A DNA stretch of 64,000 nucleotides. Origin: a bacterium (GTDB lineage Bacteria > Hydrothermota > Tepidihabitantia > SM23-42 > JAOAFX01). The DNA lies in NCBI GenBank assembly GCA_036382775.1, contig DASVHD010000038.1, positions 1 to 64,000 on the forward strand. Reading direction: 5' to 3'. This document shows, piece after piece, positions 1 to 2,521 of the stretch; position 1 is the stretch's first letter, and the number at the start of each line of letters is the position of its first letter. The translations under genes were made by a program, and so were the position numbers. Below the pieces are notes generated by a model. That model saw only the letters and a program-made list of their open reading frames with translations. It was not told the origin of the DNA and did not search any database.

Positions 1-61
1 TTTTATAGTGCTATAAAAGGTTTGTCAATATAAATTAGTTCTTTCTAAATCACCCCCTTTG

Positions 62-190
62 ATATGATTAAGTGCTCCTGATAATGCCAGTCGGGTAGAA
101 CCAGACTGCTATTCGTCCATTATAGGACATGGTATCTATTCGGAGCATGGTTGGGCTGCCTAATCTTTTACGGAATCATTTTATCAATGA
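62..190 (-). ncRNA. Candidate bridge/seeker guide RNA of the IS1111-type element
   Basis: The segment downstream of the transposase can fold into nested hairpins. The outer stem pairs 73-78 (TGCTCC) with 142-147 (GGAGCA) and continues after a bulge with 80-83 (GATA) against 133-136 (TATC). Inside are a hairpin at 88-108 (CAGTC/GACTG plus GGT/ACC, loop AGA) and another at 115-128 (GTCC/GGAC). Guide RNAs of IS110-family recombinases are multi-hairpin RNAs from a non-coding end, and in the IS1111 subgroup they lie downstream of the transposase. Strand and limits are inferred; the target- and donor-pairing loops were not assigned. Confidence 0.5.
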
Positions 191-208
191 TTAACTATAA
201 AATGAGGC

Positions 209-1276
209 TTACCCAGCCATCATATTTTTCTGCATGGCGGTTTGATAATCAATTTGGTCTTTAAGCATATGATAGATGATGCCCGCAATTTTGCGTGCCA
301 ACGCAATTCGGGCAACGCTTTTGCCTTTTCGTTTCATTAAACGGTAATAATATTGAATCAGCCGGTGATCAGTGCGGTTAGTATGTGAAGCGTGCAGGGC
401 AATTTCGACAAAGATGCGTTTTAAGTACATATTGGCTTGTTTGCAGAGGTGACCATGGTGTTGCTTATCGGCACTACTTTTTGTTTTAGGGATTAACCCC
501 ACATATGCCGCATACCGTTTGGCATCCGGGAATCGGGTGATCGGGCCGGTTTCATAGATAATCGTGAAGGCGGACAGTTTCCCTAGTCCGGGGAAGGTCA
601 TGAGCAATTGGGCGTCGGCAGATAATGCCGCTTTCTCGGTGATGATTTTTTCCCAGTAATCAATCTGGTCCGAAAGAAAATCAATGTGGCGCAGACACTG
701 TTTGATGGCTTCAGCATAAGGTGAAGGTAAGGAGATTTGCGTCAGTGCGTCCTTTTCTTTAGGCGAGATAATTTCGATTAATGAATCGCGACCTTCACCG
801 CACCATATCTGCCGGCACTCTGAAGTAATGTTGAATTTGGACAGGATGGCACGAATGACATTCTTAAATTGGGTCCGAAACATCAACAAACGAAGCCGGA
901 TGCGTAAGAGATCCCGCATGTTGCGTTCTTCTTTTTCCGGAATCCAGCAGGTCGGGAGAAGATCGGCACGTAATAGATGGGCCAACATCCGGGCATCAAC
1001 CTTATCATTCTTGACCCGGGCATGGGCGATGACCTTAGTCTGCAAAGGATTAGCAAGCAATACTTCGGTATCTAAGTCCTGCAGTAAATCCACTAACCAA
1101 TACCAGTTCCCGGTCGCTTCAACCGCAATTTTGCAGTCATTCTTAAGCGGCTCAAAGAATTGTTGAATGGCAGGCTTGTCATTGTTTAACCGCTGCGTAG
1201 TCTCCGTGTTTGTTTGGTCGTCGTACACATAAAATTGCGAAAACCTACGGTGCAAATCAATTCCAACATAATTCAT
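209..1276 (-). CDS. IS110-family transposase (DEDD recombinase)
   Basis: This 355-residue protein has the N-terminal RuvC-like DEDD fold of IS110 transposases: MNYVGIDLH near residue 7, the VEAT glutamate near residue 53, and the paired aspartates in VKNDKVDARMLAHLLRA near residue 90. The C-terminal Transposase_20 domain follows (FPGLGKLSAFTIIYETG, then RYAAYVGLIP) and contributes the catalytic serine region around KTKSS. Length is typical, no frameshift is seen, and the element may be active. A strong Shine-Dalgarno (AAGGAG) sits just before the ATG. It catalyses RNA-guided insertion and excision of its own element. Confidence 0.93.
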   Translation of the reverse strand: MNYVGIDLHRRFSQFYVYDDQTNTETTQRLNNDKPAIQQFFEPLKNDCKIAVEATGNWYWLVDLLQDLDTEVLLANPLQTKVIAHARVKNDKVDARMLAHLLRADLLPTCWIPEKEERNMRDLLRIRLRLLMFRTQFKNVIRAILSKFNITSECRQIWCGEGRDSLIEIISPKEKDALTQISLPSPYAEAIKQCLRHIDFLSDQIDYWEKIITEKAALSADAQLLMTFPGLGKLSAFTIIYETGPITRFPDAKRYAAYVGLIPKTKSSADKQHHGHLCKQANMYLKRIFVEIALHASHTNRTDHRLIQYYYRLMKRKGKSVARIALARKIAGIIYHMLKDQIDYQTAMQKNMMAG

Positions 1277-1331
1277 ATTATCTCCTTTATCGTAAGCATA
1301 ATCAGTTTCTTTCGATTGACAAACGTTTTAT

Positions 1332-1610
1332 TATATCTTTTATGCCATAAAACTGTCGATATTTTAGGACATTTTTCTGGTGTGAAGTAATCTTGAAAAT
1401 TCATTATACTTTTGAAGCATGGCCTGTTGATTTGGTCCTGAAATTGGCTGAAATACATAGCGGATTGTTAATCCCATATTTCTTCAGAAAAATCGGATCT
1501 GATAACTCAATTCGTGACTAGTTCATTTATCCTTTTGACCTATTGGCGTGAGTTTCTATCCGAAACGAAGCTGACTAATCATGTTTTTTACAGTTTATAG
1601 CATAAAAGCC
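1332..1610. other. Intergenic stretch with degenerate repeats
   Basis: No convincing gene. The words ATACATAGCGGATTGTTA (near 1452) and GCCTGTTGATT...GGTCCTGAAA recur in slightly altered form near 4215-4280, so this flank belongs to a degenerate repeat family of the accessory region. A short open frame on the minus strand at 1273-1458 has no coding character. Confidence 0.5.
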
Positions 1611-1790
1611 ACGATATTTCAGTAGTTGTTTGTCAAAGCGGTTATTTCAGCCAAGATGTAGAGTACCCGGCCTGCGGACGACACCCCCGGCGGTCGATCG
1701 AAGCACAGATCTAGCCAATTAGATCCGGAAACAGTAGCGCCATGGACTATATAGTATAATCCAATCCGATACAATATTCGATCCATTCTG
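1611..1790 (+). repeat. GC-rich intergenic repeat, copy 1 of 3
   Basis: Starts with GATATTTCAGTAGTTGT and reaches a GC-rich core near 1655-1720 (CCGGCCTGCGGAC, CGGCGGTCGATCGAAGC, CAGATCTAGCCAATTAG), then runs into the A-tract promoter. The same order of words recurs at about 4400 and 8292. Copies 1 and 3 align over their whole length, copy 2 only from the GC-rich core. Function unknown; it could be a structured leader, an insertion site or an old mobile-element end. Confidence 0.75.
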
Positions 1791-1842
1791 TTAATAATAA
1801 AAAAAACACACACCTTGTGGATGTTATAATTTGTTTTATAAT
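1785..1842 (+). promoter_or_regulatory. A-tract promoter module, copy A
   Basis: TTCTGTTAATAATAAAAAA (about 1786) is followed by a -35-like TTGTGG at 1815-1820 and a perfect -10 TATAAT at 1837-1842, spacing 16. The A-tract resembles an UP element. The block up to CAC is nearly identical in four other places in the window. It is placed to drive the lipoprotein gene at 1913. Confidence 0.65.
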
Positions 1843-1912
1843 GCTAAAAAGCATGCGAGGGGAAAAACATGATTCCATAATGGATTCATGATAATAATAA
1901 AAGGAGGTAAAA

Positions 1913-2521
1913 ATGTCTAGACGAGCATGTCTGTATTTGGGCGTCATTGTATGTATGGCTTTAATGACGTCCTGCCAAAGCATTGACAAAGCCATAGATG
2001 ATGAGTATGCTGTAATAGATGAACAAAACGATAATTCTAATGGACCGAATAGAGGGATAGACGACCTCGAACCGAGTCCCCCAGTAGTAATCCCTGAGTC
2101 ATTATGGTATCAATACGATTTCCATGAATTATCGGACGAGGAGATTGATTCTTTATATGATGCGGGGCTTGGGGATCAAGATGAATCGCCTAGCGATGGC
2201 TGGTCTGCAAAAGCATGGGCAGTATCGTGGGGATCTCTTTTCTGGAAGCTTGAATATTGTGGAGCGAGTACTAAAAAAGTTCCAATGGTTCCACCAAATG
2301 TTACTCTTTATCTTTATACGGAAATATGGAGCAAGCTTCATAGCGCTCAAAACTACACACTCAGAAAAGTTGGTGGCCCTTCCGAAACTTCCTGTGTTTA
2401 TAAGTGTTTTGTTTGGCTCTTTCTGTACTCAAAGAGTCAAACACAGGATTGGTGGTCATATGGAAAGCACCGCTGCAACGGCAGTGGCTTTGTCTACACG
2501 AATGCTTATCATACTCACTAG
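1913..2521 (+). CDS. Putative lipoprotein, unknown function
   Basis: The 202-residue product starts with a clear lipoprotein signal peptide: a basic start, a hydrophobic core and lipobox LMTSC with the lipidated cysteine at residue 21. The first third of the mature part is acidic and proline-containing, as in a linker. The C-terminal half is rich in Trp, Tyr and Cys (KLEYC, SCVYKC, HRCNG), suggesting a small disulfide-bonded domain. No family was recognised. A canonical AAAGGAGG precedes the ATG. It sits directly behind copy A of the shared promoter module and is closed by a strong terminator at 2528, so it is a single-gene transcription unit. Here the cassette lacks the small basic protein seen at 4610, 8545 and 24115. 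Confidence 0.75.
   Translation: MSRRACLYLGVIVCMALMTSCQSIDKAIDDEYAVIDEQNDNSNGPNRGIDDLEPSPPVVIPESLWYQYDFHELSDEEIDSLYDAGLGDQDESPSDGWSAKAWAVSWGSLFWKLEYCGASTKKVPMVPPNVTLYLYTEIWSKLHSAQNYTLRKVGGPSETSCVYKCFVWLFLYSKSQTQDWWSYGKHRCNGSGFVYTNAYHTH

What the first reader, a model, noticed from the sequence alone, without database searches (positions are those of the whole stretch)
13..208. IS1111-type element with inverted repeats and guide-RNA-like fold
16/17 matching inverted repeats and nested hairpins downstream of the transposase fit the recent picture of RNA-guided IS110/IS1111 recombinases. The element looks intact.
Basis: partly seen in the sequence, partly recalled or inferred. Interest (0 to 1): 0.5.

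Follow-up and report, generated by a model that had tools for sequence, protein, structure and literature searches.

The report
RNA-guided IS1111 jumping gene
This is a complete-looking small jumping gene of a known type (IS1111) whose own predicted RNA carries short guides that match the DNA site it sits in; it fits the recently described RNA-guided mechanism and is an ordinary new member from a little-studied group of bacteria.

Summary
Window 10-1338 is a 1329-bp IS1111-group element: a 355-aa DEDD/IS110 transposase (209-1276, minus), subterminal inverted repeats 13-29/1315-1331 matching at 16 of 17, 7-bp and 3-bp tips, 199 bp non-coding downstream, 62 bp upstream. The downstream end encodes a predicted two-domain RNA (74-218) whose fold is kept by compensatory changes among it and six relatives. 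Its first loop carries a guide complementary to all 9 known right-flank bases. Over 11 elements (window included), own guide/flank pairing beats all 200,000 random re-pairings. The joined flanks give a 17-mer found intact elsewhere in the genome inside a dispersed intergenic repeat, supporting the ends and the absence of a duplication. Joined ends would give TTGACA-16-TATAAT, the circle-junction promoter of this group. Family and mechanism were published in 2024 (seekRNA/bridge RNA): a new member, not a new kind. Extras: the core reads AG (AC in the window's right flank), complement of IS621's CT, with reversed guide order; two near-identical elements differ by one guide base matched by a flank base. 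Against: the left guide matches weakly, one donor-loop base departs from six relatives, two relatives have longer left tips; movement is not shown.

The parts
10..1338 (-). whole IS1111-type element, 1329 bp
   Evidence: inverted repeats plus 7-bp left and 3-bp right tips; joined flanks equal an intact 17-mer elsewhere in the genome
209..1276 (-). DEDD (RuvC-like) transposase, 355 aa
   Evidence: PF01548, PF02371; NF033542, 254.2 bits, cut-off 140; motifs
1315..1331 (.). left subterminal inverted repeat
13..29 (.). right subterminal inverted repeat (16 of 17 matching)
1332..1338 (-). 7-bp left tip AGATATA
   Evidence: length as stated in PMC11187229
10..12 (-). 3-bp right tip AGC
   Evidence: length as stated in PMC11187229
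74..218 (-). predicted guide RNA (seekRNA/bridge RNA), two domains
193..202 (-). target loop, 5' guide UUUUAUAGUU: complement of AACTATAAAA (last left-flank base plus the 9-base right flank)
   Evidence: 9 of 9 over the right flank
163..172 (-). target loop, 3' guide CGUAAA-AG-AU: left flank CATAAA (one G.U), core AG, two further bases equal to the left tip
   Evidence: weak match, not the best stretch; 8-nt identical run over the left junction
106..113 (-). donor loop, 3' guide AAUAGCAG, like the right end TATAGC-A
   Evidence: AUAGCAG in four elements with right end ATAGC, AUAGAAG in three with ATAGA
128..135 (-). donor loop, 5' guide AUACCAUG (all six aligned relatives have ACCUUG)
23..28 (-). 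-35 box TTGACA in the right end
   Evidence: spacer 16 to the -10 across the joined ends
1330..1335 (-). -10 box TATAAT in the left end
1..9 (-). right target flank ACTATAAAA (cut by the contig end)
1339..1417 (-). left target flank: left half of a dispersed intergenic repeat

Best explanation
An IS1111-group insertion sequence. Inferred cycle: the transposase and the RNA from the downstream end excise the element as a circle; joining the ends creates a TTGACA-16-TATAAT promoter that transcribes transposase and RNA; the RNA's first loop pairs with both strands of the target (CATAAA|ACTATAAAA) and its second loop with the joined ends, and the DEDD/serine active site recombines them without target duplication. 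Shown here by sequence: gene, ends, conserved fold, pairing of the right-hand guide with the flank across elements, intact target copies, promoter geometry. Inferred from published work on relatives: circle, RNA processing, catalysis, the role of the second loop. Not shown: that this copy moves.
For: Protein: NF033542 'IS110 family RNA-guided transposase' 254.2 bits, both Pfam domains, DEDD neighbourhoods. Ends: tips 7/3. Empty site: GGCATAAA|ACTATAAAA exact at C33:30117, one mismatch at C6:33350 and C16:45951, all three in one repeat family. Fold: 95.5% of cells paired, 11 of 23 pairs changed on both sides in some sequence, 24 double-change cells against 8.3 in shuffles, collapse when slid. 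Guides: window right flank paired 9 of 9; 11 elements sum to 89.0 against a re-paired mean of 72.5, 0 of 200,000 as high; in the structurally defined loop 1 of 720 permutations (the true one), 6 elements; with 4-base flanks and all 7 close elements 2 of 5040, the true one included. RNA model: 11 of 147 genomes of the phylum, 18 places, 7 of them the model's own sequences. Junction promoter spacer 16-17 in 5 of 5 close elements with both ends.
Against: Left guide weak: in the window 5.5 of 7, and another stretch scores 6; left swap test 6 of 120, and four of its five left flanks share TGTCA. One donor-loop base differs from all six aligned relatives. Core AG in the left end but AC in the right flank. 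Right flank known for 9 bases only. In G137 and G091 the left tip as I aligned it is about 11-12 bp, not 7. The five distant relatives alone give weaker support (349 of 20,000), L014 and L015 being near background. One of the five covariation measures (further pair types) does not exceed shuffles.
Confidence: 0.93

Rival explanations
1. Same kind of element but no longer mobile: transposase and ends look whole, while the donor loop has drifted.
For: Donor-loop 5' guide reads ACCAUG where six aligned relatives have ACCUUG; no second copy of this element at high identity in the assembly, the next matches being about 70%; core bases differ at the two ends.
Against: Open 355-aa frame with catalytic motifs, 9-of-9 right guide, junction promoter.
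Confidence: 0.3
2. The hairpins are only a terminator or mRNA structure and the guide matches are chance.
For: The stretch 1-208 folds only mildly better than shuffles; the flank is short and A/T-rich; no Rfam family matches.
Against: Compensatory changes, guide at the same structural position in seven elements, re-pairing test 0 of 200,000.
Confidence: 0.03
3. An IS110-group (IS621-like) element rather than IS1111-group.
For: The automatic family name is IS110, which also covers IS1111; the solved relatives found are IS621 and ISCro4; 355 aa is slightly over the 330-350 aa that PMC11187229 gives for IS1111.
Against: Long downstream and short upstream non-coding end, 17-bp inverted repeats, 7/3 tips, top-strand complement 5' of the bottom-strand match.
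Confidence: 0.03

Closest known systems
IS1111 family (ISEc11, ISKpn4, ISPa11) with seekRNA, PMC11187229
   Same: DEDD transposase, subterminal inverted repeats, 7/3 tips, RNA from the downstream end, top-strand complement precedes bottom-strand match, circle-junction promoter; ISPa11 also goes into dispersed repeats (REP)
   Different: inverted repeats 17 bp rather than the usual 11-13; SA instead of SG/TG (occasionally TA) in the C-terminal motif; different host phylum and target; no experiment here
IS110 group, IS621 with bridge RNA, PMC11208160 and PMC11208158
   Same: two loops with two guide strands each; dinucleotide core; promoter at the joined ends; homologous protein (PDB 8wt6, E 6.9e-13)
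   Different: RNA on the other side of the gene, guide order reversed, core read as AG/AC instead of CT, long inverted repeats
C47 element of the same genome (C47:90404-91468)
   Same: same architecture, transposase 56% identical, same RNA fold
   Different: different guides and flanks (AGGG right, TGTCA left)

Membership tests
IS1111 family | DEDD/RuvC transposase with PF01548 and PF02371 domains | tested here: met
IS1111 family | subterminal inverted repeats (usually 11-13 bp in PMC11187229; 7-17 in PMC11208160) | tested here: met
   17 bp, 16 matching
IS1111 family | tips of 7 bp left and 3 bp right | tested here: met
   window; these tips make the joined flanks equal an intact genomic 17-mer. 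Relatives G137 and G091 have longer left tips as aligned
IS1111 family | long non-coding region downstream of the gene | tested here: met
   199 bp downstream against 62 bp upstream (coordinates)
IS1111 family | RNA with top-strand complement 5' of bottom-strand match of the target | tested here: met
   right part strong; left part in the right place but weak
IS1111 family | GL-P----S(T)G motif | tested here: inconclusive
   GLIPKTKSSA: serine kept, glycine replaced by alanine; four of seven proteins compared have SA, three SG
IS1111 family | no target duplication | tested here: met
   by comparison with other copies of the repeat, not with the same locus empty
IS1111 family | promoter formed by the joined ends | tested here: met
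   sequence only: TTGACA-16-TATAAT
IS1111 family | transposase clusters with IS1111 members in a tree | not tested
   no ISfinder reference set was used
IS1111 family | circular intermediate; RNA bound to transposase and required for movement | not testable with these tools
   needs experiment

The most novel reading that the evidence does not exclude
IS1111 elements of this clade are a strand-mirrored form of the IS621 bridge RNA: core AG (complement of CT), guide order reversed, and the target loop's 3' guide reads left target + core + two handshake bases, so that it matches the occupied left junction over 8-10 nt in 5 of 5 elements. Much of that match is shared by descent; the independent sign is G137, where RNA (AAGUU) and left tip (AAGTT) differ from the others in step. 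If true the RNA could read the occupied left end directly, giving it a part in excision, which PMC11208158 says is unclear for IS621.
Probability: 0.4. Interest if true: 0.45.

Novelty: new member of a known kind. Interest (0 to 1): 0.28.

Why it matters
It shows RNA-guided IS1111 elements with readable guides in a WOR-3-like phylum and supplies natural guide/flank pairs, including near-identical elements (G137/G136) whose guides differ by one base that is matched in the flank. Such pairs are ready-made tests of IS1111 guide rules, of the core and of a possible handshake pairing.

Tried and rejected
Rfam on window 1-2000: no match up to E 1. Viral contigs: one stretch matched a peptide pattern, none was confirmed (this search reaches close relatives only). 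Genome contigs: one relative, apparently the same contig as L012 (same length). Plasmid collection: 3858 records match, all under 60% identity, the 15 listed at 33.9-36.4%. Orthologous empty site of the G010 insertion in 8 genomes of its genus: flank matches stayed on one side of the junction except in G010 itself, where the two halves matched apart around the element; no intact site. Left-flank swap test: not significant, 6 of 120. Idea that relatives insert beside a promoter's -35 box (left flank TGTCA is the complement of part of TTGACA): the best -10-like hexamer on the other strand has 5 (C47), 3 (C6), 3 (G010), 4 (G137) and 6 (G091) matches of 6, so not upheld as a rule. Left out of the re-pairing test: C47 (4-base flank), L012 (as L003), and L017, L019, L035, L044, whose ends I did not assign; C47 was also left out of the 720-permutation test. 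For the elements I set the ends and loop limits by eye. In one search's query the first 22 of 389 bases were mistyped and match nothing; the rest is the joined flank pair. No structure prediction or tree was run.

Full report
What is there. The window is the first 64 kb of a 114.6-kb contig of a 3.06-Mb, 51-contig genome; the one named relative found is a candidate division WOR-3 MAG. Starting 9 bases from the contig end lies a 1329-bp element, 10-1338, read on the minus strand. Its gene (209-1276) gives 355 aa with PF01548 (73.4 bits) and PF02371 (75.6 bits) and the NCBI model NF033542 'IS110 family RNA-guided transposase' (254.2 bits, cut-off 140). The two solved sequences matched are the IS621 and ISCro4 transposases. 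DEDD neighbourhoods are in place: VGIDLH, VEAT, NDKVDA; the C-terminal motif is GLIPKTKSSA, with alanine where IS1111 members usually have glycine (rule from PMC11187229, of which I read parts 1-3 of 9 and passages).

Ends. The inverted repeats 13-29 and 1315-1331 match at 16 of 17. Outside them are AGATATA (7) and AGC (3), the lengths given for IS1111 elements in PMC11187229. Non-coding ends are 62 bp upstream and 199 bp downstream of the gene. C47 and G010 have the same 7/3 tips; in G137 and G091 the left tip, as I aligned it on AG(A/T)TATAAT, is about 11-12 bp.

Target site. The left flank (1339-1417) is half of a dispersed intergenic repeat with further copies on C16, C27, C6, C33, C22, C29 and at window 1593-1619. 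Joining the two flanks gives GGCATAAA|ACTATAAAA; this 17-mer occurs once intact at C33:30117, with one mismatch at C6:33350 and C16:45951 and with two at C6:2438 and C48:941; the reversed-pattern control gives 2 hits in all. The first three lie in the repeat. So the ends are supported and no bases were duplicated, judged by other copies of the repeat rather than by the same locus empty.

RNA. Window 74-218 (minus) folds into two domains. Six relatives (C47 of the same genome, G010, G003, G137, G136, G091; transposases 50-61% identical) have a similar two-domain layout. On the 7-sequence alignment 95.5% of cells pair, 11 of 23 pairs have a change on both sides, and the measures collapse when partners are slid; one of five measures, further pair types, does not exceed shuffles. 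RNAalifold counts 10 of 23 such pairs. G137 and G136 are nearly the same sequence, so the seven are not all independent. A covariance model finds 11 of 147 genomes of the phylum, 18 places, 7 of which are the model's own sequences.

Guides. The first domain's loop holds UUUUAUAGUU, which pairs with AACTATAAAA: the last left-flank base and all 9 known right-flank bases. In the same position the other elements pair with their own right flanks (G.U included): 4 of 4 C47, 8 of 9 G010, 9 of 9 G003, 9 of 9 G137, 8 of 9 G136, 9 of 9 G091. Permuting flanks: 1 of 720 (six elements), 1 of 120 (without G136), 2 of 5040 (all seven, 4 bases), the true pairing counted each time. Taking the best stretch anywhere in 210 nt of the end, 11 elements sum to 89.0; re-paired mean 72.5, 0 of 200,000 as high; without G136, 0 of 200,000; the five distant relatives alone, 349 of 20,000. 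Against shuffled versions of its own flank the window scores 10 of 2000; L014 and L015 are near background (699 and 613 of 2000), and the low-complexity flanks of G136 and G091 are reached by 257 and 198 of 2000. G137 and G136, near-identical elements, differ by one base in this guide (UUCUGCU / UUCUUCU) and by the matching base in the flank (AGCAGAA / AGAAGAA); further out their flanks differ too. The 3' side of the loop resembles the left flank (CGUAAA for CATAAA in the window; UGUCA for TGTCA in four relatives), but this is weak: 5.5 of 7 in the window, not the top stretch; swap test 6 of 120. Together with the left tip it makes an 8-10 nt identical run over the occupied left junction in 5 of 5 close elements with a known left end, much of it shared by descent.

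Donor loop and core. The second domain carries AUAGCAG where the right end is ATAGC (4 elements) and AUAGAAG where it is ATAGA (3), probably one evolutionary change. The first right-flank base is A in 7 of 7, the second G in 6 and C in the window; the left ends of the five close elements with a known left end start AG as I set them. I read this as core AG, the complement of IS621's CT; PMC11208158 (passages) says that IS621's T is nearly invariant, the C less so, and that GT also works, which fits AC here. The opposite donor guide reads ACCUUG in six relatives and ACCAUG in the window, a reservation about donor recognition. The names of the loops and the handshake idea come from PMC11208160 and PMC11208158 (passages).

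Promoter. Joined ends give TTGACA-16-TATAAT in the window and spacers of 16, 17, 17 and 17 in the four others with both ends, as described for circles in PMC11187229 and for IS621 in PMC11208158.

Verdict. What could be tested mostly fits the IS1111 seekRNA/bridge RNA picture published in 2024; the left guide, the SA motif and one donor-loop base fit less well. PMC11208160 predicts a bridge RNA in 93.0% of ISfinder IS1111 elements (passages), so the finding is expected. Paper searches; none of the 20 papers listed (of 374) holds the term WOR-3, which is not proof that none exists.

Noticed in passing
window 1339-1417 and 1593-1619; C16:45936, C27:13469, C6:33281, C33:30117, C22:2622 and 3066, C29:95496 and 163888: Dispersed intergenic repeat of about 60-120 bp (CTGAAATATCGGAAG...GGCATGAAAGTTTACAATTAATGGCAG); no Rfam family at the repeat in seven loci searched; it is the target of the window element.
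   Followed up: partly
L051:2146-2949 (C22): A Y1 (IS200-like) transposase, PF01797 36.9 bits, weakly like REP-associated tyrosine transposases (33.8 bits, cut-off 80), lies 155 and 588 bases from two copies of that repeat: the repeat may be REP-like.
   Followed up: partly
L072, L078, L082, L084 (G002): Transposase tails with the guide RNA joined upstream to a hairpin repeat (GCGCAGGCTTTAGCCTGCGG...TCGCAC; L082 has only part of it) at three different break points; L072 and L078 share one, as if spread as a unit. Right flanks of L072, L078 and L082 all begin AGTGGAGA.
   Followed up: partly
C38 start, C47 end, C6 end: Three contig ends of this genome lie in, or a few bases outside, such elements.
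   Followed up: no
L034, L008, L011, L042, L013: The left flank of five insertions ends in TGTCA, complement of part of a -35 box; only some have a good -10-like hexamer at the right distance on the other strand.
   Followed up: partly
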